The position numbers and the translations under genes were made by a program. The notes below the pieces were generated by a model. The model was not told the origin of the DNA. It ran no database searches and worked only from the letters and a program-made list of their open reading frames with translations. A stretch of DNA of 64,000 nt from the IMG/VR virus record IMGVR_UViG_3300009419_000010, positions 1 to 64,000 of that record; one strand, 5' to 3'. Origin of the DNA: a virus. Position 1 is the first letter of the stretch; every line of letters begins with the position of its first letter. Below are positions 103 to 59,655 of this stretch, in pieces.

Positions 103-1029
103 ATGAACGTAAATTACATCAAAAATATCGACGCAATGGCTGGATTGAAGGAATTACCTGACAAATCGATTCATTGTTGTCTCACATCACCTCCTTACTA
201 CAACCTTCGTCAATACACAGATGATGAAAATGAATTTGGATTGGCAGAGACACCTGAAGAGTTTGTCAATGGATTGTGTGATTACTACGATGAAGTCTAT
301 CGTGTTCTGCGAGATGATGGTGTTGTTTTTGTGAACTTAGGTGATACCTATCTTGGAAGTGGTAAAGGTGTTTGGAAAAACAAAGAAGAACCTCAAAAAG
401 AGTCATTCAAATTTCGAGAAAAACCCAAAGAGAAATTGGGTGGTTGGAGAAAACCCAAACAATTGGCATTAATTCCTTTTCGTTTTGCCATCGAGATGCA
501 GAATAGAGGATGGATTTTGAGAAATAATATCGTATGGCATAAAGGAAATGCCCTTCCACAGAGCGTCACAGATCGTTTTGTGGTTGATTTTGAATCGGTA
601 TTCATGTTCGTGAAAAGCAAATCATATTATTTCAAACAACAAATTGAACCATTTGCCAATTCTTCTAATCCAATGGAAGTCTACACAGGAGAGGCTACAA
701 AGGATTATGAGACTCAGAAGGCTCAGAACCCAAGTGATACGAAGAGAAGGATTCTGGATGCAATGCGTAAGCGAGGAGGACGTTCCATGAGAGCAGTCTG
801 GAAAATTAATACCAAACCCAACAAGTCAGTCCACACAGCCACATTCCCCGAAGAATTGGTGGAACGTATGTTGAAGAGTGGATGCCCTGAAGGTGGTGTC
901 GTATTGGACTTCTTTATGGGTTCAGGGACAACAGGAGCAGTTGCCAAACAATTAGGCATGAACTATATCGGATTTGATTTAAATTCCGAATATTGTGAAG
1001 TGGCGAGAAAGAGAATTAATTCTTTTTAA
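103..1029 (+). CDS. DNA methyltransferase, beta class (N4-cytosine or N6-adenine type)
   Basis: Site-specific DNA methyltransferase of 308 residues. Catalytic motif IV (TSPPYY, residues about 28-33) precedes the SAM-binding motif I (DFFMGSGTTG, about 270-279), the order that defines class beta enzymes. SPPY is common in N4-cytosine methylases, so base specificity is uncertain. It likely protects phage DNA from restriction or marks it. No restriction partner is adjacent, so it is an orphan enzyme. It has its own sigma70-like promoter abutting the ATG, suggesting early expression. The last 14 bases overlap the end of the convergent gene at 1016-1252. Confidence 0.9.
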   Translation: MNVNYIKNIDAMAGLKELPDKSIHCCLTSPPYYNLRQYTDDENEFGLAETPEEFVNGLCDYYDEVYRVLRDDGVVFVNLGDTYLGSGKGVWKNKEEPQKESFKFREKPKEKLGGWRKPKQLALIPFRFAIEMQNRGWILRNNIVWHKGNALPQSVTDRFVVDFESVFMFVKSKSYYFKQQIEPFANSSNPMEVYTGEATKDYETQKAQNPSDTKRRILDAMRKRGGRSMRAVWKINTKPNKSVHTATFPEELVERMLKSGCPEGGVVLDFFMGSGTTGAVAKQLGMNYIGFDLNSEYCEVARKRINSF

Positions 1030-1252
1030 TTTTCTTTCTGCGTTTTTTATTTTTTAATTTACCTCTCCTCGTGGTGATACCCATCCCATAAGGATTCCTA
1101 GCATCTCCTGAAGCAAACCAATCGGTGTTTTCAATACCAGCATGACCAGCGACATCGCCTCCATATACGTCTCCAGCAGTCATATCCTCGTTCAACATTT
1201 GTTGATAAAGATTTGCGATGTTATTTTGATCATTGACAAAGGGTTTGCTCAT
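1016..1252 (-). CDS. small late protein with candidate capsid-targeting N-terminus
   Basis: Unrecognised 78-residue protein. The N-terminus contains NNIANLYQQMLNED, an amphipathic stretch that recurs in several otherwise unrelated small late proteins of this window. The C-terminus is very basic (KNKKRRKKIKKN), which would suit DNA or RNA contact inside the head. It is expressed from its own late promoter (TAAATA five bases before the ATG). The late promoter and single-gene arrangement suggest a virion component, possibly an internal head protein; this is inference. Confidence 0.7.
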   Translation of the reverse strand: MSKPFVNDQNNIANLYQQMLNEDMTAGDVYGGDVAGHAGIENTDWFASGDARNPYGMGITTRRGKLKNKKRRKKIKKN

Positions 1253-1257
1253 GTTAT

Positions 1258-1263
1258 TATTTA
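1258..1263 (-). promoter_or_regulatory. late promoter TAAATA, N5 before ATG 1252
   Basis: Minus-strand CTAAATAATAACATG. Five bases separate TAAATA from the start codon. Confidence 0.75.
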
Positions 1264-6091: not shown

Positions 6092-7878
6092 AAAAAATCT
6101 TATATAAAAATTTAAAGGGGCAGAACTTCCTGAGTATCGGAAATGACCAGATTGTGATTGATTTCCAATCTGGTTTTAACCTGATTACTGGAAAGAATTT
6201 GGATAATCCTGATCGTGTGAACGGAATCGGGAAAAGTTGTATTGCAGAACTTTTCTACTATGCATTGTTTGGTAAAACCATCCGTGACATCAAGAAAGAA
6301 TTCATCATCAACAATATCACCAAAGGAAAGGGTGCTATTGAGCTTACGTTCGACGTAGAGACTGACAATGACACGCAGACATACACAATCAAGCGACAAC
6401 TTAAACCAAGCTCTGTGACGCTCCTGAGAGGCGAAGAAGACATCACCAAGGACTCCATTTCCAATACAGATAAATTCATCTGTGATTTGATCGGTTCCAA
6501 TCCTGTGATTTGTCGTAGTTGTGATATTCTATCTCTTTCGGATAACATCCCATTCATGGCAAAGAAGCCTGAAGAGAAGCGCAAATTCATCAATGATATT
6601 TTCTCTCTGGAAGTCTTTGGTAAGATGAGCAACGAATTGAAGAATCTGATTCGTGAGAACAAATCAGATATGAATATTTCCTCTGCTAAATTGGAAGAAA
6701 TTGACAACACTTTGGAAACTCTGAATAGACAACAAGAAGATTACCAAAAGAAAGTCGAAGAAATGGAGGGTCGTCTTGAGGCGAGACGCATTGAAATTCA
6801 AGGGAAAATCTTTGATATTGAAAAAGAGATTGATAAAACATCCGTTATGGATGTTTCTACGATACAACAAGAGCAAGAAAAGTATCATGAAGCATGGAGA
6901 AAGCTGGATGGAAAGATCGGTCATGTGAATGATGCGATTTCATCCAAGGAGACTTTGAGAAAGCTGAAGGTGAAAGAAATTGATAAATTTTCCTCTGTTG
7001 AAGATGGTATTCAGTGTGATAAATGCCTCCAAGATATTCCCCATACCCATGTGGAGCATCTGGAGAAGATGAAGGAACAGTATCAATCTGAACTGAATAA
7101 TATTGTAGAAGAAATTAATGGATTGAAAGAACAAAAATCTCAATTTCATTCTAAAAAAGAAAAAGTCCAAGCCAAAGTAGCTGAGTTTCAGGATCAAATC
7201 AATGAAGCAAAAGTCACCAAACAAAAATTGGAAGGTCTGGAAAACAGTCTCAAGCAATACAAAGAGTCTCTGGACAATTTGAAGCTGGAAGAATTACCTA
7301 AACCAAATTTCGAGGTAAGTATTCAAAATACTTGGGCGAGACAAAACGCTGAAAACGACAATTTCCGAATGTTCAAACAGAAATCAGATGATTATGAAAT
7401 CTGTAAATTCGTGCTAGGAGAAGAAGGTGTTCGTAGCTTTGTGGTGAAGAGACTTCTTTCCATGATGAACGCAAGCATTCAGCAATATATCAACGATCTT
7501 GGTATGTCCATTCGTTGCAAATTCGATGAATACTTTGATGAGCAGCTTTCCAATGATAAAGGTAAGGAGATTTCTTACTGGAACTTGAGTGGTGGCGAAC
7601 GTAGAACGGTTGACCTCGCGTGTGCGTGGGCATTCAAGGATTTGAAGAGAAAGATTTCAGGCGTGTCATCTAATGTGGAATGGATTGATGAAGTTTTCGA
7701 TTCCGCTTTTGATGAGAGAGGGTTTGACCTTCTTGTGGAACTCATGAAACAGAGAATTGATAAAAATTCTTTATCTGTCTATGCTATCTCTCATAGAAAG
7801 GAAATGGAGAAGCATGTTACTGGTGAAATAGTCTTCCTTGAAAAGGAAAATGGGGTCACTAGAAGACTAAATATATAA
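6088..7878 (+). CDS. 46: gp46 recombination endonuclease subunit (SbcC/Rad50-like)
   Basis: 596-residue SMC-like ATPase. It has an N-terminal P-loop region ending GIGKS (about residue 50), two long coiled-coil arms around a zinc hook CDKC (residues about 310-313), an ABC signature LSGGERR (about 500) and a Walker B-like WIDEVFD. It partners gp47 encoded immediately upstream (ATGA overlap). The next gene starts on the following base and carries its own late promoter inside the last codons of this gene. Confidence 0.95.
   Translation: MKKILYKNLKGQNFLSIGNDQIVIDFQSGFNLITGKNLDNPDRVNGIGKSCIAELFYYALFGKTIRDIKKEFIINNITKGKGAIELTFDVETDNDTQTYTIKRQLKPSSVTLLRGEEDITKDSISNTDKFICDLIGSNPVICRSCDILSLSDNIPFMAKKPEEKRKFINDIFSLEVFGKMSNELKNLIRENKSDMNISSAKLEEIDNTLETLNRQQEDYQKKVEEMEGRLEARRIEIQGKIFDIEKEIDKTSVMDVSTIQQEQEKYHEAWRKLDGKIGHVNDAISSKETLRKLKVKEIDKFSSVEDGIQCDKCLQDIPHTHVEHLEKMKEQYQSELNNIVEEINGLKEQKSQFHSKKEKVQAKVAEFQDQINEAKVTKQKLEGLENSLKQYKESLDNLKLEELPKPNFEVSIQNTWARQNAENDNFRMFKQKSDDYEICKFVLGEEGVRSFVVKRLLSMMNASIQQYINDLGMSIRCKFDEYFDEQLSNDKGKEISYWNLSGGERRTVDLACAWAFKDLKRKISGVSSNVEWIDEVFDSAFDERGFDLLVELMKQRIDKNSLSVYAISHRKEMEKHVTGEIVFLEKENGVTRRLNI
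7868..7873 (+). promoter_or_regulatory. late promoter TAAATA, N5 before ATG 7879
   Basis: CTAAATATATAAATG lies within the last codons of gp46, with exactly five bases before the ATG. Confidence 0.7.
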
Positions 7879-8526
7879 ATGAAAAGTGGGAATTATTTCT
7901 TAGACATTGCAAATATTTATTCGAGGATTATAAAAGAATCCCCTGATAATATTACAGTTATTGACAATGAGGGTAAACGTAAATATTTTTCGTATGATGA
8001 CACTCCAAATGCTTACACTGGTCTTATCGGTAGCGATGGTAAATATGCCATATCAAAAGATATTATAGGACATCACAATTTGATTGATGCGATTTTAAAT
8101 AGCGGTGAAGATATTATTCAAAAATTAATAACCAATGCTGATGATATCGGAGATCTGAAAAGTTTAGTCAGAGACAGAATAAAAATAAGAATCTGGAAAA
8201 ATCAAAAAGTTTATAGTATGTGGGATAAATACGATCCTTCATATGAAGATGCTATTAAAGATTCTCTGGAAGCAATAGGCGAAAATTATCAAGATTATAA
8301 ATATGATAATGACTATAAAGATTATGGAAATCTTCCTGATGCTGATACTTTCTTCGTAAAAAGCTTGTCAGATGCTGAAAAAGAAGAGAAAATGAAGGCT
8401 GAAATGGAAAAACGTCAAGCTGAAAGAGCTTTAGCAGACAGAATGGCTGGTATAAAAAGAAAAGCTTCGAGTGATTATGACGCTCCTTATAAAAAACCTT
8501 CTTGGATGAATAGAGAAGGGGATTGA
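7879..8526 (+). CDS. late protein with candidate capsid-targeting N-terminus, 215 aa
   Basis: Unrecognised. Near the N-terminus LDIANIYSRIIKES (residues 8-21) resembles the NIANLYQQMLNE stretch of the gene at 1016-1252 and similar ends of other small late proteins. The middle is acidic (many Asp/Tyr); the C-terminal third (about 150-215) is a charged helix followed by a basic tail ending KKPSWMNREGD. It has its own TAAATA promoter although it directly follows gp46, so it is probably a late virion-associated protein rather than part of the nuclease operon. Confidence 0.75.
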   Translation: MKSGNYFLDIANIYSRIIKESPDNITVIDNEGKRKYFSYDDTPNAYTGLIGSDGKYAISKDIIGHHNLIDAILNSGEDIIQKLITNADDIGDLKSLVRDRIKIRIWKNQKVYSMWDKYDPSYEDAIKDSLEAIGENYQDYKYDNDYKDYGNLPDADTFFVKSLSDAEKEEKMKAEMEKRQAERALADRMAGIKRKASSDYDAPYKKPSWMNREGD

Positions 8527-8554: not shown

Positions 8555-9742
8555 ATGTTTAATAGTCAACCATTTGCTTCTCCTTTCCCAACAAGTCCAT
8601 TTCAAGGGCAAAATAAACATCAAGAGGAACCCAAAAAAGGTAATGTTTATTTAAATTTCGTGGCAGATCGTCAAGGATGTGGTCAATGGCGAGTAGGTTG
8701 GCCCGAACATCACATCAATATGAATAATCTTGGTGAGTCTACATCGCTCACTAAGATGATTTTTGATAAAAATTGGTTTCGAGATATTAAAACCGTCAAA
8801 TTACAAAGACAAGCATCTACCCCTCAAAAACAATATTTTGAATTTCTCAAGAGTATTCAAGCAGAAATGGGATTCAAGATTATCTATGAAGTAGATGATG
8901 TTGTATTTCGTGAAGAAATTCCTGATTATAATTCAGGAAAACCATCGTTCGATAATGACGAAATCCGTCAAAATTGTGTTGACATGATGCGAATGGCAGA
9001 TGAAGTCACAGTCACATGTAAGTTCATGCGTGATTTGTTCATTCAAAAAACGGGTCAAGAAAAAATCTCCGTGATTCCAAATTTCCCACCTGAATGGTGG
9101 ATTGGGCATTATTACGATTCTTATAAAATTGCTAAAAATTACGATAAAAATCGTAAAAGACCGAGAATTTTATATTCTGGCTCAGGAGCGCACTTTGATG
9201 TGAAAAAAGGAGGGCAAGACGATTTTTCCCATGTGTTGAAATTTATTATCGATAATAGGTATAAATATCAATTCATTTTCATTGGTGCATTTCCTCCACA
9301 ATTGCATCCATACATTCAAAATGGAGAAATTGAATTTCATCATTGGCAGACATTGACAAATTATCCGAAATTTATTTCCGAACTAAATGTGCAATTAACT
9401 CTCGCACCTTTGATGGATAATAATTTCAATAAATCGAAGTCAGATATCAAATATATTGAGGGTGCTGTGTTAGGTATCCCTTGTATGTGTCAGGATTTGG
9501 TGACTTATTCCGATGTTCCTGATTTTCTGAAATTTAATAATTCAGAGGATTTAGCTGTAAAAGTAGAACAATTGTTGAATTACAAAAATCGTGATAGGTA
9601 TCACAATTTATCTAAAGAATTGAGAAAACTTGGTGAAACAAGATTCCTCGAAAGACCTGAAAACATTGGTGCTTTTCTTGAATCGATGAACACGCCTTGG
9701 GGTGATCAGTCTCGTAGATTTATGAAATACTGGAACGATTAA
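8555..9742 (+). CDS. glycosyltransferase, GT-B fold (GT4-like)
   Basis: 395 residues. A low-complexity N-terminal leader (1-30, Pro/Gln/Ser-rich) precedes a GT-B-like enzyme. IYEVDDVVF (about residue 110) is a typical acidic loop of phage GT4-like enzymes, and the C-terminal donor domain has KSDIKYIEGAVLGIPCM, resembling the E-x7-E/G region. The acceptor is unknown: phage DNA, a virion protein or host glycan are all possible. Early-type promoter and position among replication genes slightly favour a DNA- or host-directed role. Its stop overlaps the convergent gene end at 9739. Confidence 0.8.
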   Translation: MFNSQPFASPFPTSPFQGQNKHQEEPKKGNVYLNFVADRQGCGQWRVGWPEHHINMNNLGESTSLTKMIFDKNWFRDIKTVKLQRQASTPQKQYFEFLKSIQAEMGFKIIYEVDDVVFREEIPDYNSGKPSFDNDEIRQNCVDMMRMADEVTVTCKFMRDLFIQKTGQEKISVIPNFPPEWWIGHYYDSYKIAKNYDKNRKRPRILYSGSGAHFDVKKGGQDDFSHVLKFIIDNRYKYQFIFIGAFPPQLHPYIQNGEIEFHHWQTLTNYPKFISELNVQLTLAPLMDNNFNKSKSDIKYIEGAVLGIPCMCQDLVTYSDVPDFLKFNNSEDLAVKVEQLLNYKNRDRYHNLSKELRKLGETRFLERPENIGAFLESMNTPWGDQSRRFMKYWND

Positions 9743-10020
9743 TTTCTAGTAAATTCAGAATATTGAGCAAGAGTCGGTCGAAGACGCTCAAACATTCCTT
9801 TTAAATTGTCATACGGTGTCTTATTCGAAGGATTTTTGAAAAACTCTTCTTTATTGTTTTGATAATAAGCTATTGTTCCTTTTAGATATTTTTCGATATA
9901 TGAAGAAACTTCATTCACTTCAGCCTTCATCTTTTCGGTAAAAGCGTCATAATCATCATATGATGATTGAAAATCAAGATTTTCGTAAATCATACCTAAG
10001 TCTTTAAAATAATCATTCAT
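9739..10020 (-). CDS. small late protein, 93 aa
   Basis: Unrecognised, acidic and Tyr/Asp-rich, helical. N-terminal YFKDLGMIYENLD fits loosely the shared N-terminal motif of the small late proteins. It is expressed from a late promoter that lies in the loop of a perfect 12-bp inverted repeat covering the start codon (10015-10047), so readthrough mRNA from the upstream gene would have this start sequestered. Confidence 0.75.
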   Translation of the reverse strand: MNDYFKDLGMIYENLDFQSSYDDYDAFTEKMKAEVNEVSSYIEKYLKGTIAYYQNNKEEFFKNPSNKTPYDNLKGMFERLRPTLAQYSEFTRN

Positions 10021-10047
10021 ATCATTATTTAATAAAATGATATGAAT
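10015..10047 (-). repeat. perfect 12-bp inverted repeat around late promoter and start codon
   Basis: Arms 10015-10026 (ATTCATATCATT) and 10036-10047 (AATGATATGAAT), nine-base loop. It begins seven bases beyond the stop of the gene at 10054-11454 on the minus strand. The loop and adjoining arm contain the TAAATA element (10026-10031) and the arm contains the ATG of the next gene. It could act as a transcript end or as a translational block on readthrough RNA. Confidence 0.7.
10026..10031 (-). promoter_or_regulatory. late promoter TAAATA, N5 before ATG 10020
   Basis: Minus-strand TTAAATAATGATATG. It is embedded in the inverted repeat 10015-10047. Confidence 0.75.
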
Positions 10048-14057: not shown

Positions 14058-14063
14058 TAAATA
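14058..14063 (+). promoter_or_regulatory. late promoter TAAATA, N5 before ATG 14069
   Basis: TTAAATAATAATATG just after the polymerase stop. Confidence 0.75.
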
Positions 14064-14068
14064 ATAAT

Positions 14069-14434
14069 ATGCAATTTACGATTTTATTTGAAAAACTTTT
14101 AAACGAACTTGTTGATACTCTTTTTCCAACCTTCGTGACAAAAAGAGCAGAAGGAGCGAAAAAAATAGAAGAATCCGCAAGGAAAAAAGGTTCTTTTGCT
14201 ATCTTAACTGCTTACCACTTTGCTGGTAAGGTGAAACCATATGCTGATGCTTTGCGAAAAGCTAAGAAAGATGATAAAGAATCCCATCTCAAAGCAAAAT
14301 ATAAAGAAGCTTATGCTAAACTTAAAAATTTGGATTCTCTTTCACAAAAAGAATTTCAAATGATCACAGGAACTCTTGAAGCATATGGTGAAGTCTACAT
14401 TCAAGCGAAACATCCAAAAGATTATTCGAAATAA
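14069..14434 (+). CDS. small late protein, 121 aa
   Basis: Unrecognised, strongly basic and helical (many Lys/Ala, e.g. ALRKAKKDDKE). N-terminal FTILFEKLLNEL fits the shared hydrophobic N-terminal motif of the small late proteins. The late promoter and basic composition suggest a packaged internal head protein, inferred only. Confidence 0.75.
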   Translation: MQFTILFEKLLNELVDTLFPTFVTKRAEGAKKIEESARKKGSFAILTAYHFAGKVKPYADALRKAKKDDKESHLKAKYKEAYAKLKNLDSLSQKEFQMITGTLEAYGEVYIQAKHPKDYSK

Positions 14435-17623: not shown

Positions 17624-18989
17624 ATCCGCGATCTTTAAACTCGCCAATATTGTTTAGGTGGCTATCTTTTTTGACTTGTTCAGAGAAATACCCCATAACA
17701 CCTGTCTCTTCTTCCTCGTTCTTCTGTTTGCGAGGTTTTTTTGGTTTTTGTGTTGGGCTTTCTTTTTCTTTGGCGTAAAATGCGTCATCAGAAGCTTTTC
17801 TAACATCAGAAAAATTATCGGATGTGTCAATCTCTGCCGAACTAAATCCTGCTGCTTTTCTACCAGCAGAGATTTCTTGTTTTTCCAAAGCATCGGAAGA
17901 TTTTATCAATTCTTTCCATTTGAGAACAATTTCAATTTCTGGCTCAGTTATAATACCTTTGCTTGCCACACTGTTTAGAAAATTTGGAGTATAAATGTCG
18001 AGAATATCTTCAACGGCTTTTCGCTTGTCATCTATCATCTCTTCGGAAACTCCTCTTGTTTCACGCGATTCCAGATCATTTTCATATTCATCCGCAATAT
18101 ATTCGCTCATTTCTGAAGGAAATTTGTTAATGAAGGCATCATAAAGTTTCTCCTTGGAGACTGGTTTATTGTTCGATAATCTATCTTCCAAAGTTTTGAT
18201 GATCATACCCAATCCCTTAACATCTACGTTGTAATATTCGACTAATTCTTGATCGTCTCGCAAACCTATCAAAGTTTCAATAAACGTATCCAAAGGTATT
18301 AAATCCTCGGAAATTTTTTTATTACCATCATCAATCACGATTCTTTCTTTGTTTCGTAATGCTTGTATTGTTCCTGAAGGTAGTAAAGTTCTGCTTCTTC
18401 TATTTATTTTGGTAATAATTGGCCAAACCTCCCCCTTCATGGTTGCAAAATCATTAGCAGACATGGAATATTTTGTTTCGATACGGGTAGCATATCCCTT
18501 CGCCCTGTTTTTAAACTCTAATCTATCTTCGAGTTTCTGTTTATATTCTTCAATATATTCAGGACTCGTTACTTCATTGAAGAATTTTTCAGAAGTCGCG
18601 AGGTCAGGTTTTTTATTCGCTAAGTATGAAACGATCCACTTGGAACGCTTATTACTATCATTTGATCCCGTCCCGATGAAATCGAGATAATCTTCCTGTA
18701 ATTCGGGAGATTTTTCCCATAACTTTGCGATGTATTGATTGACACTTGTATATTGAAAAGTTGTTTTGTAAATTTTCTCGTATAATGCTTCCGTCACATA
18801 ATCGTTCAATAATTTGACATTTGCTGGAACTTTCCACTTTTCAAATAGTTTTTTTCCTATTTCTGGTCGTATCACATTGACAAAGTTTGCGACCTTTTCA
18901 TTTTTTTCTGGTCTTGTTGAAGATGTTTTAGCCATTTCAGACAAAACCTGTACCTTTTCTACCAAATAATCGAATCCGTAATTTCTCAT
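17577..18989 (-). CDS. large late protein, candidate internal head protein
   Basis: 470 residues, unrecognised, highly charged and predominantly helical, with a Lys/Glu-rich disordered-looking stretch near residues 400-425 (PTQKPKKPRKQKNEEEE). The N-terminal FDYLVEKVQVLSEMAK loosely fits the shared motif of late proteins. Expressed singly from a late promoter of the TAAGTA type five bases before ATG. No enzyme motif seen, so ADP-ribosyltransferase-like roles of T4 Alt cannot be supported. Confidence 0.75.
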   Translation of the reverse strand: MRNYGFDYLVEKVQVLSEMAKTSSTRPEKNEKVANFVNVIRPEIGKKLFEKWKVPANVKLLNDYVTEALYEKIYKTTFQYTSVNQYIAKLWEKSPELQEDYLDFIGTGSNDSNKRSKWIVSYLANKKPDLATSEKFFNEVTSPEYIEEYKQKLEDRLEFKNRAKGYATRIETKYSMSANDFATMKGEVWPIITKINRRSRTLLPSGTIQALRNKERIVIDDGNKKISEDLIPLDTFIETLIGLRDDQELVEYYNVDVKGLGMIIKTLEDRLSNNKPVSKEKLYDAFINKFPSEMSEYIADEYENDLESRETRGVSEEMIDDKRKAVEDILDIYTPNFLNSVASKGIITEPEIEIVLKWKELIKSSDALEKQEISAGRKAAGFSSAEIDTSDNFSDVRKASDDAFYAKEKESPTQKPKKPRKQKNEEEETGVMGYFSEQVKKDSHLNNIGEFKDRGFKKPVNYHHWLSLNG

Positions 18990-28887: not shown

Positions 28888-29301
28888 TTAAGACTTCTTC
28901 GCAGCGATGAACGCTTGTTGCAGAGCAGCGAGATCAGAAGCGATACGACCAATCTTAACTTGTTGTCTTTGCAAGTTTCCTAAAATAGAATCAGGATTTG
29001 CAGTGGCTAGAACGCTTTGAATGCTGTTTGGTTGATCACCATTCAAATAACCAAGGAACTTATCAATGTTATTACTCCATTTATCGACAACGCCCACCAT
29101 TTGCTCATTCTGACGAGCGACAGCATCACCAATTTCATCCATAGCATTTGGATCGGGCTCAACATCCACATCGTAATCATCGAGATTCACACCATCATCT
29201 AATTGTCCACCAGCAGCAGCTTCTTCAGCAGCAGGATCGAAATCGAGTTCAGGTGCTTCTCTGAGTAATTTAATGAATTTAGCTTGAAATTTGTTTCGCA
29301 T
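28888..29301 (-). CDS. late acidic protein, candidate prohead core component
   Basis: 137 residues. The N-terminal FQAKFIKLLREAPELDF fits the shared N-terminal helix of the small late proteins. Residues 22-60 are Ala/Asp/Glu/Gly-rich and disordered-looking, followed by a helical C-terminal half. Composition resembles T4 prohead core proteins, but no direct match is claimed. It is transcribed divergently from the gene at 29338, each with its own late promoter. Confidence 0.72.
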   Translation of the reverse strand: MRNKFQAKFIKLLREAPELDFDPAAEEAAAGGQLDDGVNLDDYDVDVEPDPNAMDEIGDAVARQNEQMVGVVDKWSNNIDKFLGYLNGDQPNSIQSVLATANPDSILGNLQRQQVKIGRIASDLAALQQAFIAAKKS

Positions 29302-29306
29302 ACTAT

Positions 29307-29312
29307 TATTTA
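29307..29312 (-). promoter_or_regulatory. late promoter TAAATA, N5 before ATG 29301
   Basis: Minus-strand CTAAATAATAGTATG; back to back with the plus-strand element at 29324. Confidence 0.75.
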
Positions 29313-47407: not shown

Positions 47408-48544
47408 ATGCCTAAGATTTCCCAATATGATCCAGCGACAACACCTCTATCTGGTGGTGAGACTTTTATTTTGAATCAAAAAGGGGTAACATACAATACT
47501 TCTTTAAGCTCTATCAAAAATTATACGGACACCACACTTCGTAGCTTATCCGCTAATTATGCTAGAGTGAACGTTAATAATAATTTTTCAACGACTCAAA
47601 CTTTTGCTACAAGTGCGATCAATATAGGCAGCTTACCGATTAGCGCAACACGAGCTAATAGCTTTTTTGTAGGTAAAAGTGCTGGTAATGGTGCTACAGG
47701 TGTAACTGGTTCCAATTTCATAGGTAAGAATGCTGGTAGTGGTGCTACATTTGCAGGTTATTCCAATTTTATAGGTCAAGATGCTGGTAGTGGTGCTACA
47801 AATGCGAGTAGTTCTAACTTTTTGGGGCAAAATGCTGGTAAAGACGCTCTAACTTCTAATGGTTCTAATTTCATAGGTCAGGATGCTGGTGTTGGTGCTG
47901 AAAATGCAAGTGATTCTAACTTCATAGGTAGTTTCGCTGGTAAATATGCATCAGATTCTAGTACATCTAATTTCTTAGGTTATAAAGCTGGTTATCTTGC
48001 TGTATTTGCATTCGACTCTAATTTCTTAGGTAGAAATGCTGGTCATCAATCTAGTGTCGCTATGGCAGGTGCAAATAATTCCAATTTTTTAGGATATAAT
48101 GCTGGTGATGTTGCTACCTATGCAAATAATTCCAATTTCTTAGGTCAGAATGCTGGTGGCGGTAGCACTGGTGTCTATGCTTCAAATGCAGGTTATTCTA
48201 ATTTCTTCGGTCAGAATGCTGGTTATGGTGCTACAAATGCAAGTAATTCTAATTTCTTTGGTAAGGATGCTGGTAGTGGTGCTACAAATGCAAATAATTC
48301 TATTTTCATAGGTGAAGAAGCTGGTGCTAATGCTATTAATGCGAATAATTCTATCTTCATTGGTTCTAACTCTGGAGCATCTTTATCTGGTTGTATTGCT
48401 TTAGGCACTGGTGCTGTCCCTACTGCACGTAATCAATTTGTTCTTGGTTCATCATCAGTTCCACTATCAACAGTAGACGGTGGCAATTCTTTAGTTATAA
48501 GAATAAACGGCACTCTTAAAAAGATAGCTTTGCTTTCTGTCTAA
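47408..48544 (+). CDS. tail fibre/adhesin made of 17-residue repeats
   Basis: 378 residues. After a fibre-like N-terminus (about 1-85) come roughly 13 tandem units of usually 17 residues with consensus SNFxGxxAGxGATxAxx (residues about 90-325), ending in a capping block RNQFVLGSSSVPLSTVDG. The spaced Phe/Ile, Gly and Ala suggest a beta-roll or YadA-head-like solenoid. DNA identity between units is high enough to allow recombination. Likely an exposed receptor-binding fibre. Confidence 0.78.
   Translation: MPKISQYDPATTPLSGGETFILNQKGVTYNTSLSSIKNYTDTTLRSLSANYARVNVNNNFSTTQTFATSAINIGSLPISATRANSFFVGKSAGNGATGVTGSNFIGKNAGSGATFAGYSNFIGQDAGSGATNASSSNFLGQNAGKDALTSNGSNFIGQDAGVGAENASDSNFIGSFAGKYASDSSTSNFLGYKAGYLAVFAFDSNFLGRNAGHQSSVAMAGANNSNFLGYNAGDVATYANNSNFLGQNAGGGSTGVYASNAGYSNFFGQNAGYGATNASNSNFFGKDAGSGATNANNSIFIGEEAGANAINANNSIFIGSNSGASLSGCIALGTGAVPTARNQFVLGSSSVPLSTVDGGNSLVIRINGTLKKIALLSV
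47681..48377 (+). repeat. tandem coding repeat, about 51 bp unit
   Basis: In-frame repeats within the fibre gene: each unit contains a variant of TCTAATTTCTTAGGT followed by GCTGGT. Some units are longer (20-22 residues), showing unit expansion. Confidence 0.75.
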
Positions 48545-48562: not shown

Positions 48563-49363
48563 ATGAAAGAAATATTTTTTGTCGGTGGGCTACCAAGATC
48601 TGGTAGCACACTACTTATGAATTTATTGGCACAGAATGAAAATGTATTCTGTACTCCTACCTCTGGTTTACCAAATCTATTAAACAATATCAAGGTTTCT
48701 TGGTCTAATATGTTAGAACACCGTGCTGATAAAAATGCTTCTGCCGATGAAAATTTGAAAAGAATACTCAATACGGTGTTTTATAATTATCATAACACTG
48801 ATAAACCATTTATCTTTGATAAATCGAGAGCATGGGGACATAATATAGAGATGATCGAAGCGATAACAGGTAAAAAAGTTAAAATTATCGCTCCTGTAAG
48901 AGATATTAAAGATGTTTTAGCTTCTTTCGAGTCTTTATACAGAAAAGGCTCATATAAATTCCCACCTCAAGGTCCGATGCCTCAATGTGTGACAACTCAA
49001 GGTAGGGTGCAACACTGGGGTAGTCTACAAGGTGAAGTAGGAGCAGCATATGCAATTCTACAAGATGCATTTTTAAGAGGTTACAGCGATAGGTTTCTTT
49101 TGATTGATTATGATTACCTTACACATAATCCAAAATATGTTATGGATAGAGTTTGGGAATTTTTGGATATTCCTAAAATTGAACACGATTTTGATAATAT
49201 AGTCAATAAAACACCAGAGGACGATACAGTATATAATTACGTTGATTTACATACAATAAAAAATTCTATTATCCCTTCCAAGTCTAAAGCAAATGAGATT
49301 TTAGGAGAAGATATATGTAAAACATTAAAAGGTTACGAATTTTGGAAAAATTTAGCTAAATAA
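48563..49363 (+). CDS. sulfotransferase (PAPS-dependent)
   Basis: 266 residues. The 5'-phosphosulfate-binding loop GGLPRSGST (8-16) and the 3'-phosphate motif region IAPVRDIKDVLAS (about 109-121) with conserved Arg/Ser mark the PAPS sulfotransferase fold; LIDYDYLTHNP is a later family block. It would transfer sulfate from PAPS to a hydroxyl of a carbohydrate or protein. It lies between the repeat fibre and head genes and is expressed late, which suggests that a virion surface component is sulfated (inference). Confidence 0.85.
   Translation: MKEIFFVGGLPRSGSTLLMNLLAQNENVFCTPTSGLPNLLNNIKVSWSNMLEHRADKNASADENLKRILNTVFYNYHNTDKPFIFDKSRAWGHNIEMIEAITGKKVKIIAPVRDIKDVLASFESLYRKGSYKFPPQGPMPQCVTTQGRVQHWGSLQGEVGAAYAILQDAFLRGYSDRFLLIDYDYLTHNPKYVMDRVWEFLDIPKIEHDFDNIVNKTPEDDTVYNYVDLHTIKNSIIPSKSKANEILGEDICKTLKGYEFWKNLAK
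49357..49362 (+). promoter_or_regulatory. late promoter TAAATA, N5 before ATG 49368
   Basis: CTAAATAATAACATG, overlapping the sulfotransferase stop. Confidence 0.75.
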
Positions 49364-49736: not shown

Positions 49737-50756
49737 ATGAGAAAAAAACAAACAACACTAGGAGATGTTTACGGAGAAATGCTTAAAAGTGTTAAAACCG
49801 TTGTAAATGAGAACGCTCAGGAAAATATCAATAAATCCAAAAAAATTCCTAAAATGTCGAAAAATGCATTTAATGATAAAATGGATATCCAAAAAGGCGG
49901 ACCTACAGCAGCAGATGGTTTCCATAAAGCATTGAATGATGATTATTGTGGTTGTGATGAAGAAGACAACGAAGAACAATATAATAGAATTTCTGAAATC
50001 GAGAAAAAATTGGAAAATCCTAATCTATCTGATAAAGAAAAAGCTTCTCTTGAGAAAAATCTCAAAAATATGAAAAAAAATATGCAAAGAGAAGAAGCTG
50101 AAGAAAATATTGTTGAAGAATCTAAAAAAATTGCAAGAGAAAGACTAAATACTTTTATGATGAAAAAATCTACATTTGATAAATTGTTTGAATCTGTTAT
50201 GGGTGGCGATTTCTCCGAAGACGCTGAAAACGCTGCATTGGGTCTTTCCGATGCTCCTACTGATGACGAATTCGGTGATGACATGGGTGATGAAGATATG
50301 GGTGATGAAGTTACCTTTACTCTTGATCGTGCCACTGCTCAAAAACTTCATGATGTGCTTATGGGCGTTCTTGGAGGTGAAGAAGACCTCGGTGACGAAG
50401 GTGATGATCTAGACTTCGATATGGAAGGCGAAGAAATGGACGAAGAAGGTGATATGTATGACGATGAAGAGGAATACGAAGAAGATGAAGAAACCTTCCC
50501 TACCGATAAAGTTGGTAACGATGGGACAATTGGTGCTAAAAACTCCAAAGATGGTTCTCACAAACTCCAATCCAAAAACAACAAAGTTGGTGGTCGTCCA
50601 CAACCTAAAAATCAAGGAACCAAAGTAACTGGAACCACAGATAAAGTTGGTAACGATGGTGATCACGGTCATGCTCTACACGGTGCAAAACAACCAAACA
50701 TGGGCAAACAAAACCAAGTGTCTGATTTGAGAACATCGGAAGACTACTTCCGCTGA
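49737..50756 (+). CDS. acidic late protein, candidate prohead scaffold/core
   Basis: 339 residues. The N-terminus TTLGDVYGEMLKSVKTV and an internal FDKLFESVMGGD both fit the shared late N-terminal helix. Residues about 180-260 are extremely Asp/Glu-rich; the C-terminal 85 residues are basic and contain a duplicated TDKVGNDG motif. The strongly acidic middle and charged segments resemble scaffold/core proteins. A perfect terminator follows at 50785. Confidence 0.7.
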   Translation: MRKKQTTLGDVYGEMLKSVKTVVNENAQENINKSKKIPKMSKNAFNDKMDIQKGGPTAADGFHKALNDDYCGCDEEDNEEQYNRISEIEKKLENPNLSDKEKASLEKNLKNMKKNMQREEAEENIVEESKKIARERLNTFMMKKSTFDKLFESVMGGDFSEDAENAALGLSDAPTDDEFGDDMGDEDMGDEVTFTLDRATAQKLHDVLMGVLGGEEDLGDEGDDLDFDMEGEEMDEEGDMYDDEEEYEEDEETFPTDKVGNDGTIGAKNSKDGSHKLQSKNNKVGGRPQPKNQGTKVTGTTDKVGNDGDHGHALHGAKQPNMGKQNQVSDLRTSEDYFR

Positions 50757-50827: not shown

Positions 50828-51187
50828 ATGGAATCTTTTCTGGAATTTTTTGAAAAACACAACGGTGTCATACTAGAATACCGACACAAAGATGCTTTCG
50901 GAAATATCAAACAGAGTCTAGTAAATCCTAGTAATAAAAAAGGTGGTAGTGATATTGCTCGTATGGTTAATAGAAAAAATATCTCAACCAAAGGACCATA
51001 TCAAAAGATCAGAAGTAATGGGCAAATTTTGATTGGTGATGAATTATTGAAAGAGTTGGGATCTTTGGGTGGCATCGAATTTGAAGATGGAAAGGAAATT
51101 AAAAGAAAGAATTCCAATCAAATCATAAAAATGTTCACCAATTTACACGGTCAACAATGCGGAAAAATCGTAGAAATTAAAAAATAA
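50828..51187 (+). CDS. hypothetical late protein, 119 aa
   Basis: Unrecognised, basic, with NPSNKKGGSDIARMVNRKNIS near residue 40. ATG 50828 is fixed by the late promoter; in-frame codons upstream lie in the terminator. Overlaps the neck-like gene by one base, first gene of the 51-54 kb packaging operon. Confidence 0.72.
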   Translation: MESFLEFFEKHNGVILEYRHKDAFGNIKQSLVNPSNKKGGSDIARMVNRKNISTKGPYQKIRSNGQILIGDELLKELGSLGGIEFEDGKEIKRKNSNQIIKMFTNLHGQQCGKIVEIKK

Positions 51188-54192: not shown

Positions 54193-54798
54193 ATGTCAAC
54201 ACCTGTACAGCAATCATGGCTTAACCGATCAAGAAAAGACAAATTTCTTCTCGTTTTCGATTTGCCCCCAATTCTCAAGAAAATCCAATCGAATTACACG
54301 AGAAATAATAACACGATCATTCCTGATAGTGTGCAATTCAGCATCTATGGGACAATGGTTCCAGGTCTGACAATCAAAGCGATTGCGACTCGATATGCTG
54401 GCGATACTCTTTATGTGTCATCTCACTCCAAAGATCCATATCCTCCTGTAAATGTTAAATTTAAGGTAGATTCTGGTTATAATAATTATTGGGCAATTTA
54501 TCAATGGTTAAATCTGCAACATGACCAAGAAACAGGTCAATTTAATGCAAAGGGGATTGTAGTTGATGGTAATTTCTCTGATTATCAAACAGATATAACG
54601 ATGTATGGTTTGGATGAATATGATAATAAAGTAATTCAATTTAAATATACGAAAGCTTTTGTAACATCAATCGATGAATTAGCATTCTCTCAGAATGAGA
54701 CGGGTGAAATGGAGATTGAAAGCGGATTTACTTTTGTTTTCTCACAAATGCACATCAATTTACTGGGATGTGATAGATATAATCAGACTCTTTCTTAA
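54193..54798 (+). CDS. tail-tube-fold protein, 201 aa
   Basis: Beta-rich protein with the layout of T4-like tube relatives: DKFLLVFDLPPIL, VQFSIYGTMVPGLTIKA, then NVKFKVDSGYNNYWAIYQW, then YTKAFVTSIDELAFS. Length matches the gp19-type proteins at 58461 and 59047. Located directly before sheath, the place of tail-terminator or proximal tail proteins in T4-like maps. Its exact role (tube initiator, terminator or completion) is undecided. Confidence 0.65.
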   Translation: MSTPVQQSWLNRSRKDKFLLVFDLPPILKKIQSNYTRNNNTIIPDSVQFSIYGTMVPGLTIKAIATRYAGDTLYVSSHSKDPYPPVNVKFKVDSGYNNYWAIYQWLNLQHDQETGQFNAKGIVVDGNFSDYQTDITMYGLDEYDNKVIQFKYTKAFVTSIDELAFSQNETGEMEIESGFTFVFSQMHINLLGCDRYNQTLS

Positions 54799-57681: not shown

Positions 57682-58452
57682 ATGGCTGGAACTACCATTG
57701 AAAATTTAGGCAAAGCAACAGAATACGATCAATGTCCTGCTATTTATATTTTAAAAAATAATAAAAACGGTAAGGTTTATGTCGGAGAAACTATGAATTT
57801 GAGACAGCGAGTATATTCATATCATAAATCAAATATAGATACCCCTAGACCTATATTGAGAGCTATCAATAAACATGGTTTAGAAAATTTTTCATTCGAA
57901 TATCAATATTATCCTGATATGTCTAAGGACGAATTATTGGATATTGAAGAGAGATTAATAAAAGAACACAATAGTTTAATGAGTGGAAGCGGATACAATG
58001 TTTGTTCAAGAGGGCAAAATAGATATTTAGCAACACAATCTCTTGAAGCTCGTAAAAAAAGGAGTGAAATTTTTAAAGGGAGAGTCATTACAGAAGAATG
58101 GAGAGAAAACATGTCAAAAGCCAAGAGTGGAGAGAACCATCCAATGTATGGTAAAAAAATGTCAGAGGAGACGAGGAAAAAAATGGGCGATTCCAGAAGA
58201 GGTGAGAGAAATGGGAGATATGGGAAGAAAATGTCTGAAGAAGCTAAAAGAAAAATGGTAGAAAATTTACCAAATAAAGTATGTGTATCACAATATACAA
58301 AATCTGGTGAATTTGTTAAATCTTATTTTTCTATAGCTGAAGCTGCGAAACAAACTGGAATAGATAGTCGTCATATAAGTGCGGTGTGTAATAATAAAAA
58401 TAGAAAAACATCTGGTGGTTATATTTGGAAAAAAGACACACTTCATCACTAA
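57682..58452 (+). CDS. GIY-YIG homing endonuclease with NUMOD domains
   Basis: 256 residues. The GIY-YIG domain (about 18-105) has AIYILKNNKNGKVYVGET and the catalytic Arg in LRQRVYSYH and Glu in IEERLIKEHN. Two NUMOD3-like repeats follow (GENHPMYGKKMSEETRKKM, then GERNGRYGKKMSEEAKRKM), then a C-terminal NUMOD1-like helix-turn-helix ending SGGYIWKK. A free-standing homing enzyme inserted between sheath and tube genes; its first codons and promoter resemble those of the tube gene downstream. Confidence 0.92.
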   Translation: MAGTTIENLGKATEYDQCPAIYILKNNKNGKVYVGETMNLRQRVYSYHKSNIDTPRPILRAINKHGLENFSFEYQYYPDMSKDELLDIEERLIKEHNSLMSGSGYNVCSRGQNRYLATQSLEARKKRSEIFKGRVITEEWRENMSKAKSGENHPMYGKKMSEETRKKMGDSRRGERNGRYGKKMSEEAKRKMVENLPNKVCVSQYTKSGEFVKSYFSIAEAAKQTGIDSRHISAVCNNKNRKTSGGYIWKKDTLHH

Positions 58453-58455
58453 ATA
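58450..58455 (+). promoter_or_regulatory. late promoter TAAATA, N5 before ATG 58461
   Basis: CTAAATACTATTATG; overlaps the endonuclease stop codon. Confidence 0.8.
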
Positions 58456-58460
58456 CTATT

Positions 58461-59030
58461 ATGCCAACAAGTATTGAAAATTTTATGTCACAGGCGATGC
58501 AAAAACAATTTGCTCGCGACTTCCTTTTCCGTGTTAAACAGATCGACATCACAGGACTTTCCTTGGATGGTGAGACTGATTTGGTTTACGCTAAAACAGC
58601 TACTTTTCCTGGAAGAGATATTGAAAACAAACAGGTGAATTATTCAGGTCAAACTTTCAATATTCCTGGAAAATCTAGCTATCCAGGTTCTGAAGGTTGG
58701 TCTGTAGAATTTTATCTTGATCAAAATTTGGATATCAGAGAGAAACTCGAAAGAGCAAGTAGAGTCCTATTCGACAACGAAACCACCACTGGTAATATTT
58801 GTATGCCAGGATACGAATCCGTAATTACTTTGGATGTTCTTCAAATCCCTTGTCAAAGAGGTCCTAATGTAACATCGGGTAGTGAAATGCAAGTTGGTAG
58901 AACAATCCAATTGATTGGTGCTTCTCTTCGAAATATCAGCGAAGTTTCTTATGAAATTGCTGATGGAACTGGTGAAATTAAAACATTCACTGCGACTTTC
59001 GCGTATCATTTCTATCGTGGACTGGTCTAA
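58461..59030 (+). CDS. 19: tail tube protein gp19
   Basis: 189 residues (T4 gp19 is 163). DFLFRVKQIDITGLSLDG near the N-terminus, KTATFPGRDIENKQVNYSG and EGWSVEFYLDQNLDIREKLE followed by a beta C-terminus TFTATFAYHFYRGL form the T4-like tube fold. Forms the inner tube on which sheath assembles. ATG 58461 is set by the late promoter; an in-frame upstream ATG-like start falls inside the endonuclease gene. Confidence 0.88.
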   Translation: MPTSIENFMSQAMQKQFARDFLFRVKQIDITGLSLDGETDLVYAKTATFPGRDIENKQVNYSGQTFNIPGKSSYPGSEGWSVEFYLDQNLDIREKLERASRVLFDNETTTGNICMPGYESVITLDVLQIPCQRGPNVTSGSEMQVGRTIQLIGASLRNISEVSYEIADGTGEIKTFTATFAYHFYRGLV

Positions 59031-59046: not shown

Positions 59047-59655
59047 ATGTCTAACCCACAGATTGAAGATTTTCTCCAAGCGTTCTCAGGGGACGCTAGA
59101 TACTGTCTTTCTATACCAGTATTATGGTCAGTATCCATTGATGGAGTATCGAATGATTCCATAAACCAGTATTTACAGTTAGCACAGGAAAAATGGAGAG
59201 CTAAGATCACTCCTAATTCCATGACAAAAAATGGTAATATTTTACCAGCACAAGCAGTGACAATTCCAACTGAGGGAGCTAATTTTGGTTCTAGTTCAAT
59301 TGGTGAAAATAGTGGTGGATTTTTGCCAGGATATGTTTTGAACAGTAGACAAGATTTCTTGTCTCGTAGCTTTTCTATAAACTTTTTAGAGACTAGAAAA
59401 GATTTGGAACATGAATATTTCAGACCTTGGATTATCGCTACATCTATAAAAGGATTAATCGAAGCAGGTGCAAATCTCAAAGCTGATATCACAGTGAAAC
59501 AATACACAAACGGTGGTGAATTGAGAAAAGGTTATATCTTTAGAAAAGCATTTCCCACTGCTGTTGAAGGATTTACAATGGATTATCAAAATACAGAATT
59601 TCCTGTGAAATCCGTGACATTTGCTTGTCAGAATTACGAACAGATTGCTGTGTAA
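59047..59655 (+). CDS. tube-like baseplate protein (gp48/gp54-type candidate)
   Basis: 202 residues. RYCLSIPVLWSVSIDG, VTIPTEGANFGSSS and RSFSINFLETRKDLEHEYFRPWI follow the tube-fold order, with the same length as gp19 but an added N-terminal helix. In T4 gp48 and gp54 are gp19-like and cap the baseplate to start the tube; a similar role is plausible. Directly coupled to the next gene by a one-base overlap. Confidence 0.65.
   Translation: MSNPQIEDFLQAFSGDARYCLSIPVLWSVSIDGVSNDSINQYLQLAQEKWRAKITPNSMTKNGNILPAQAVTIPTEGANFGSSSIGENSGGFLPGYVLNSRQDFLSRSFSINFLETRKDLEHEYFRPWIIATSIKGLIEAGANLKADITVKQYTNGGELRKGYIFRKAFPTAVEGFTMDYQNTEFPVKSVTFACQNYEQIAV

What the first reader, a model, noticed from the sequence alone, without database searches (positions are those of the whole stretch)
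1182..1252. Shared N-terminal helix on unrelated late proteins: candidate capsid-targeting sequence
Small late proteins that are otherwise dissimilar begin with a similar amphipathic stretch: NNIANLYQQMLNED (1252-), LDIANIYSRIIKES (7879), FKDLGMIYENLD (10020-), FTILFEKLLNEL (14069), FQAKFIKLLREA (29301-) and TTLGDVYGEMLKSV (49737). Most stand alone behind a late promoter. T4 internal head proteins share a removable N-terminal targeting peptide; this could be the equivalent here and would mark a set of co-packaged proteins scattered through the genome.
Basis: partly seen in the sequence, partly recalled or inferred. Interest (0 to 1): 0.7.

Follow-up and report, generated by a model that had tools for sequence, protein, structure and literature searches.

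The report
Phage head-packaging tags on many proteins
Many unrelated proteins of this uncultured marine T4-like virus begin with the same short address label, a longer version of the one phage T4 uses to load proteins into its head, so the label probably marks a set of proteins that are packed with the DNA and injected into the host.

Summary
The N-terminal motif is real. It is best explained as a capsid-targeting sequence (CTS), an extended relative of T4's MKTYQEFIAE|A. Consensus: phi-x-x-phi-Y-x-x-phi-phi-x-E|small; its second half matches T4's targeting (4, 7) and processing (8, 10) residues position for position. It sits at N-termini of about 15-20 families in the record and four relatives, above internal and shuffled controls. 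Most carriers have a late promoter (TAAATA, 5 nt, ATG) shared with sheath, gp22 and gp21 genes. Two natural experiments: one mature protein follows a T4-type tag (MKSFYQFFWE|) in three genomes and the extended tag (IANLYSEILVE|) in a fourth; and two copies lie inside a fused 478-aa protein that is two genes elsewhere. In cyanophage S-CREM2 (published virion proteome) all four non-lytic virion enzymes carry T4-type tags. Targeting and cleavage are not shown experimentally in this phage. Bonus: the 1252- protein copies the post-cleavage N-arm of its group's major capsid protein, and S-CREM2 does likewise with its own.

The parts
1187..1252 (-). Extended CTS of the 78-aa protein 1016-1252(-): MSKPFVNDQNNIANLYQQMLNE|D, predicted cut after Glu22
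   Evidence: Best-scoring motif member; IAN[IL]YQ[QT]MLNE kept in 34 contigs
1258..1263 (-). Late promoter TAAATA, 5 nt before ATG 1252
1091..1138 (-). Segment GIENTDWFASGDARNP resembling the post-cleavage N-arm of gp23 of relatives; a K/R-rich tail follows to 1016
7879..7938 (+). Extended CTS of the 215-aa protein 7879-8526: MKSGNYFLDIANIYSRIIKE|S
   Evidence: Y14, I17, I18, E20 and S21 invariant in six relatives; predicted helix 4-20 in a low-confidence model
7868..7873 (+). Late promoter TAAATA, 5 nt before ATG 7879
9967..10020 (-). Extended CTS of the 93-aa protein 9739-10020(-): MNDYFKDLGMIYENLDFQ|S; Q at the expected Glu (E in the G002 ortholog), so cleavage is doubtful
10026..10031 (-). 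Late promoter TAAATA, 5 nt before ATG 10020
14069..14107 (+). Short T4-type CTS candidate of the 121-aa protein: MQFTILFEKLLNE|L
   Evidence: late promoter; start conserved in five genomes, but the Glu is not kept in G004 (MEFTNLFEKLMTK)
14058..14063 (+). Late promoter TAAATA, 5 nt before ATG 14069
18936..18989 (-).
   Evidence: orthologs start alike behind TAAATA-N5 (here TAAGTA)
29257..29301 (-). Short T4-type CTS candidate of the 137-aa protein 28888-29301(-): MRNKFQAKFIKLLRE|A
   Evidence: conserved in five genomes, all with the late promoter
29307..29312 (-). Late promoter TAAATA, 5 nt before ATG 29301
49737..49811 (+). Extended CTS of the 339-aa acidic protein 49737-50756: MRKKQTTLGDVYGEMLKSVKTVVNE|N; no own promoter, cleavage Glu displaced
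   Evidence: 20 related loci; LGD[IV]YG kept in the four relatives with the start in frame
50828..50857 (+). Weak short CTS-like start MESFLEFFEK of the 119-aa protein 50828-51187; G004 ortholog MQSFSQFFES
   Evidence: late promoter; no Glu at position 10

Best explanation
The shared N-terminal stretch is a capsid-targeting sequence (CTS) of T4 type in an extended form. During late infection each tagged protein is made from a late promoter that abuts its start codon, probably as a leaderless message. Its amphipathic N-terminal helix docks on the gp22-type prohead core. The T4-type protease gp21 then cuts after the phi-x-E at the end of the tag and frees the mature protein inside the head, which is ejected with the DNA. 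Shown by sequence: motif, position, conservation, late-promoter linkage, exchange with a T4-type tag, modular fusion and fission, presence of gp21, gp22 and gp23 in relatives. Inferred: docking, cleavage, packaging, ejection.
For: Enrichment at N-termini. Residue match to T4 MKTYQEFIAE|A and to its mapped targeting and processing residues (PMC9026906). Late promoter TAAATA-N5-ATG shared with head and tail genes; 23 of 67 late families carry phi..phi-phi.E in the first 30 residues against 28 of 343 others, p = 1.4e-7, and 3 of 67 internal windows of the same proteins. Tag exchange MKSFYQFFWE|AFSD to IANLYSEILVE|AFSD on one protein family. Internal copies in the 478-aa fusion, separate genes elsewhere. 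gp21 and gp23 in relatives. In S-CREM2 all four non-lytic virion enzymes carry T4-type tags; strict pattern 5/52 virion against 2/167 other proteins, p = 0.009. A tagged relative carries Kinase-PolyVal, a domain of proteins proposed to be injected.
Against: No virion data for this phage group. The record itself lacks the protease, portal and capsid genes, as expected of a fragment. 10020 lacks the cleavage Glu and 49737 has it displaced. Some patterns were refined after seeing the data; the pattern fixed earlier gives only p = 0.025 in S-CREM2. On phage T4 the loose pattern also has chance hits (13 against 4.5 expected).
Confidence: 0.82

Rival explanations
1. The helix is a docking signal for the prohead core but is not generally removed; phi-x-E at its end is coincidental in many members.
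For: 10020 has Q at the cut in two of three orthologs, 49737 lacks Glu at the expected place, and 14069 loses it in G004. In T4, Asp at residue 10 blocks processing but not targeting (PMC9026906).
Against: Most core families keep E followed by A, S, G or D. The exchanged tags join the same mature protein exactly after E. The 1252- protein and gp23 resemble each other just after their predicted cuts.
Confidence: 0.12
2. The helix is an assembly or partner-binding signal for another late structure (tail, baseplate, membrane), not for the head.
For: Late promoters are shared with tail genes, and some tagged genes lie near tail genes.
Against: The match is to T4's head signal, residue by residue. 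Sheath, tube and fibre proteins with the same promoter lack the extended motif. In S-CREM2, enzymes rather than tail parts carry the tag.
Confidence: 0.05
3. Chance or composition: short amphipathic starts in AT-rich genes look alike, or a few paralogs share a start by descent.
For: The unseeded motif is not above internal controls in the subset of proteins of 110 aa or more, and a permissive pattern has many chance hits.
Against: Family-level enrichment against internal windows and shuffles. Mature parts are unrelated by the BLAST clustering used. The same mature protein carries different tags.
Confidence: 0.03

Closest known systems
Phage T4 capsid-targeting sequence of IPII, IPIII, IPI and Alt (Mullaney and Black 1996; reviewed in PMC9026906 and PMC3012670)
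   Same: Short N-terminal tag on otherwise unrelated proteins; Y-x-x-phi-phi-x-E|small in the same spacing as MKTYQEFIAE|A; late expression; gp21 protease and gp22 core in relatives
   Different: Extra upstream phi-x-x-phi and leader residues; more tagged families per group; both short and extended tags in one genome; copies inside a fused protein; late promoter abutting the start codon
Giant-phage head propeptides (phiKZ, SPN3US; PMC5694885)
   Same: N-terminal propeptides on ejected head proteins, cut at phi/A/S-x-E
   Different: Those are mostly over 100 residues long and lack this motif; tags here are 10-25 residues
Polyvalent proteins (PMC5512222)
   Same: Proposed co-injected enzymes; a tagged G003 protein has the Kinase-PolyVal domain
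   Different: Here mostly small proteins, each with its own tag, rather than one large multidomain chain
Virion-associated enzymes of cyanophage S-CREM2 (PMC10665884)
   Same: SAM hydrolase, kinase, cytidylyltransferase and Cas9-like nuclease found in virions begin with T4-type tags
   Different: Short T4-type tag only; the paper's main text mentions neither capsid targeting nor N-terminal features

Membership tests
T4-type CTS internal head protein | Tag at the extreme N-terminus, about 10-20 residues | tested here: met
   Tags end at residue 10-25; start codons supported by TAAATA-N5-ATG
T4-type CTS internal head protein | Key residues at T4 positions 4 and 7 (targeting) and 8 and 10 (processing) | tested here: met
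   Y..phi-phi.E in 1252- and 7879 and most relatives; only partly in 10020 and 49737
T4-type CTS internal head protein | Same tag on otherwise unrelated mature proteins | tested here: met
   15 core families separate by BLAST
T4-type CTS internal head protein | Late expression with head genes | tested here: met
   TAAATA-N5-ATG shared with gp21, gp22 and sheath genes; promoter activity itself not measured
T4-type CTS internal head protein | gp21-type protease and gp22/gp23 head in the same phage | tested here: inconclusive
   Present in four relatives; absent from this fragmentary record
T4-type CTS internal head protein | Protein found inside virions | not testable with these tools
   No proteome for this group; S-CREM2 serves as a distant proxy
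T4-type CTS internal head protein | Tag removed by gp21 | not testable with these tools
   Only predicted from phi-x-E and the junction evidence
T4-type CTS internal head protein | Tag sufficient to package foreign proteins | not testable with these tools
   Natural tag exchange on one family is suggestive only
Giant-phage (phiKZ/SPN3US) head propeptide | Propeptides mostly over 100 residues | tested here: not met
   Tags here end at residue 10-25
Polyvalent protein | Several disparate effector domains in one chain | tested here: not met
   No recognised multidomain effector chain among the window's tagged proteins

The most novel reading that the evidence does not exclude
These phages run an open cargo system: two interchangeable tags, single or in tandem inside fused proteins, load ten or more proteins per virion. 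One cargo, the 1252- protein, exposes after cleavage a copy of the capsid protein's own N-arm followed by a basic tail, so it may occupy capsid arm sites and tether DNA to the shell.
Probability: 0.3. Interest if true: 0.75.

Novelty: new variant of a known kind. Interest (0 to 1): 0.6.

Why it matters
If right, the N-terminus plus the promoter lets one read from sequence which uncharacterised proteins a marine T4-like phage injects; such proteins are the likeliest first-response counter-defence and takeover factors, as IPI and Alt are in T4. It also extends the T4 CTS, best studied in coliphages, to uncultured marine phages and, through S-CREM2, ties it to published virion data whose main text does not mention such tags.

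Tried and rejected
Canonical TATAAATA as the late promoter: not enriched; the real element is TAAATA with 5 nt to ATG. Pfam and PHROGs on the six proteins: no confident family. A first soft-EM motif search degenerated to a generic helix and was replaced by a fixed-site search. The retrained profile is circular, so leave-one-out was used. AlphaFold of a tagged protein that looks like an ADP-ribosyltransferase by eye failed (pLDDT 43) and was not searched further; the 215-aa protein model is weak (pLDDT 55) and used only to note a helix at residues 4-20. tblastn against annotated phages: no match for the 1252-, 7879, 49737 and 17577-18989 proteins. The S-CREM2 ORF160 N-terminus found no other annotated phage, so how common the capsid-arm copy is stays open.

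Full report
What was checked. The window is bases 1-64000 of a 108,762-base IMG/VR virus record. It is T4-like: DNA polymerase, single-strand binding protein, terminase (31-38% identical to the nearest annotated phages listed, mostly cyanophages), sheath and tube genes. The six proteins have no convincing match in Pfam or PHROGs.

Relatives. Two scans gave close relatives, including records of 184, 198, 150 and 154 kb. These contain a T4-type prohead protease (PF03420, E about 1e-29) and a gp23 capsid protein (PF07068, E about 1e-85). The window's record lacks both, which fits a fragment. I called genes in all five records with a codon and ribosome-site score (home-made, so starts are approximate) and grouped 1176 proteins into 535 families.

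The motif. Anchored on its tyrosine it reads phi-x-x-phi-Y-x-x-phi-phi-x-E, then mostly A, S, G or D: IANLYQQMLNE|D, IANIYSRIIKE|S, IGLIYENILLE|A, IGDIYTDLLQE|S, IANLYSEILVE|A, IRNLYNQIINE|R, LVYLYEQIITE|G, LQNIYSDLILE|Y. T4's IPII and IPIII start MKTYQEFIAE|A; gp24 starts MAKINELLRE|S and Alt MELITELFDE|D. In T4, mutational work assigns targeting mainly to residues 4 and 7 and processing to 8 and 10 (PMC9026906). Those are the Y, phi, phi and E of the motif here, in the same spacing.

Is it more than chance? Y..phi-phi.E occurs in 34 of 1176 N-termini, against 7.7 in internal windows and 8.6 in shuffles. Drawing one member per family, the extended pattern occurs 6.6 times against 0.8 internally, maximum 3 in 500 draws. 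A seedless search over N-termini returned it as the top motif, but not above internal controls for the subset of longer proteins. Leave-one-family-out scoring recovered the site in 15 of 15 core families; these were picked by the motif, so this measures coherence, not discovery.

Late promoter. TAAATA lies exactly 5 nt before the start codon in 34 cases among 61 CTS-family genes and in 136 cases among the other genes, including sheath, gp22, gp21, fibre and tape-measure genes; enrichment of TAAATA upstream of CTS genes has p = 3e-15. In the window's record all 22 such starts lie in 1-77,400 and none in 77,400-108,762. The element is [AG][CT]TAAATAATAAT-ATG. T4 late promoters are an 8-bp TATA box about one helical turn before the transcription start (PMC2988020), so transcription would start at about the ATG and the messages would be leaderless; this is inference. 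It also supports the start codons, hence the motif's position. Among late families 23 of 67 have phi..phi-phi.E in the first 30 residues, against 28 of 343 other families (p = 1.4e-7) and 3 of 67 internal windows of the same late proteins.

Natural experiments. (1) One protein family begins MKSFYQFFWE|AFSDLGKLSPEQL, or a close variant, in G001, G002 and G003 and MKLTQKDQSEIANLYSEILVE|AFSDLGKLSPEQL in G004: the same mature protein behind a T4-type or an extended tag, joined exactly after E. (2) Record 64937-66373(-), just outside the window, is a 478-aa protein with two internal copies, each after GESKSW, and a related start MGKKFDAIYETVIQRGE; in G001 the modules are separate 243-aa and 118-aa genes, the second with its own near-N-terminal tag; in G003 they are also two genes, and in G002 and G004 one shorter fusion. 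So the motif behaves as a module boundary. (3) The 1252- family in 34 contigs keeps IAN[IL]YQ[QT]MLNE|D, and nearly all also keep the TAAATA spacing.

Experimental anchor from a marine T4-like phage. The C-terminal module of the 478-aa protein is up to 92% identical over 38 residues to proteins of several hundred cyanophage records. One such protein, ORF160 of S-CREM2, was detected in virions (PMC10665884 Table 3). In that proteome the four non-structural, non-lytic enzymes begin MKDFDSFLEE| (SAM hydrolase), VKRFDAFLTE| (kinase), MKNFSSFLTE|A (cytidylyltransferase) and MTSRWSNWSTGSDKKPLRFASFMAE|A (Cas9-like nuclease); ORF13 and ORF136 begin MKDLHSFLTE| and MQTFSMFFSE|. The strict pattern marks 5 of 52 virion proteins and 2 of 167 others (p = 0.009); the looser one 8 and 9 (p = 0.025). 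The strict form was set after seeing these N-termini. The paper's main text does not mention capsid targeting or N-terminal features.

Cargo. Most mature parts are unknown. Exceptions in relatives: a Kinase-PolyVal domain (E 8e-36), a poly(A) polymerase/CCA-type nucleotidyltransferase and a putative protease. Kinase-PolyVal is a domain of polyvalent proteins, proposed to be injected with DNA (PMC5512222). Some others look like ADP-ribosyltransferases by eye, without database support.

Capsid-arm mimic. After its predicted cut the 1252- protein reads DMTAGDVYGGDVAGHAGIENTDWFASGDARNP; gp23 of relatives reads SNNAGSNGVFGATLQPTGVPGIANSDSYASGDARLP after its own predicted cut. The GDAR-x-P pattern occurs only in these two of 535 families, and the alignment score was reached by none of 2000 shuffles, though the best shuffle (55) came near the observed 58. 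S-CREM2 ORF160 does the same with its own, different gp23 (AAGATGFTGAAAPEGPVAGYDPLM and AVGADGFTGAAAPGGPNAGFDPVM; score 95, best shuffle 51), while comparisons across the two phages are not significant. A basic stretch follows in both. A decoy or anchor that takes the place of a capsid arm is the simplest idea; it is untested.

Verdict. It is a new variant of a known kind, with direct proof of packaging and cleavage still missing.

Noticed in passing
1091-1138 (-); L115:1874-2767; L118:40482-41852: The small basic protein at 1016-1252(-) copies the post-cleavage N-arm of its group's gp23, and cyanophage S-CREM2 ORF160 copies its own, different gp23 arm; cross-group matches are not significant.
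   Followed up: partly
genome-wide, e.g. 1258-1263 (-), 7868-7873 (+): Late genes carry TAAATA exactly 5 nt before the start codon, which would make late messages leaderless.
   Followed up: partly
record 64937-66373 (-), just outside the window (L002:1937-3373): 478-aa protein with tag-like modules fused in series and a PQQAQ-repeat linker; split into separate genes in G001 and G003. Its C-terminal module is up to 92% identical over 38 aa to proteins of several hundred cyanophage records.
   Followed up: partly
L096:3001 onward; L102, L108 and L109: In some relatives the 1252- protein runs on into an extra C-terminal domain.
   Followed up: no
54193-54798, 58425-59030, 59047-59655 (+): Three tail-tube-like genes (phrog_45) instead of one, the first upstream of the sheath gene and the other two downstream.
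   Followed up: no
47408-48544 (+): Protein made of repeats of the type SNFIGxNAGxGATxA, with a late promoter.
   Followed up: no
48563-49363 (+): Sulfotransferase-like gene shared with a few Synechococcus phages and marine single-cell viruses.
   Followed up: no
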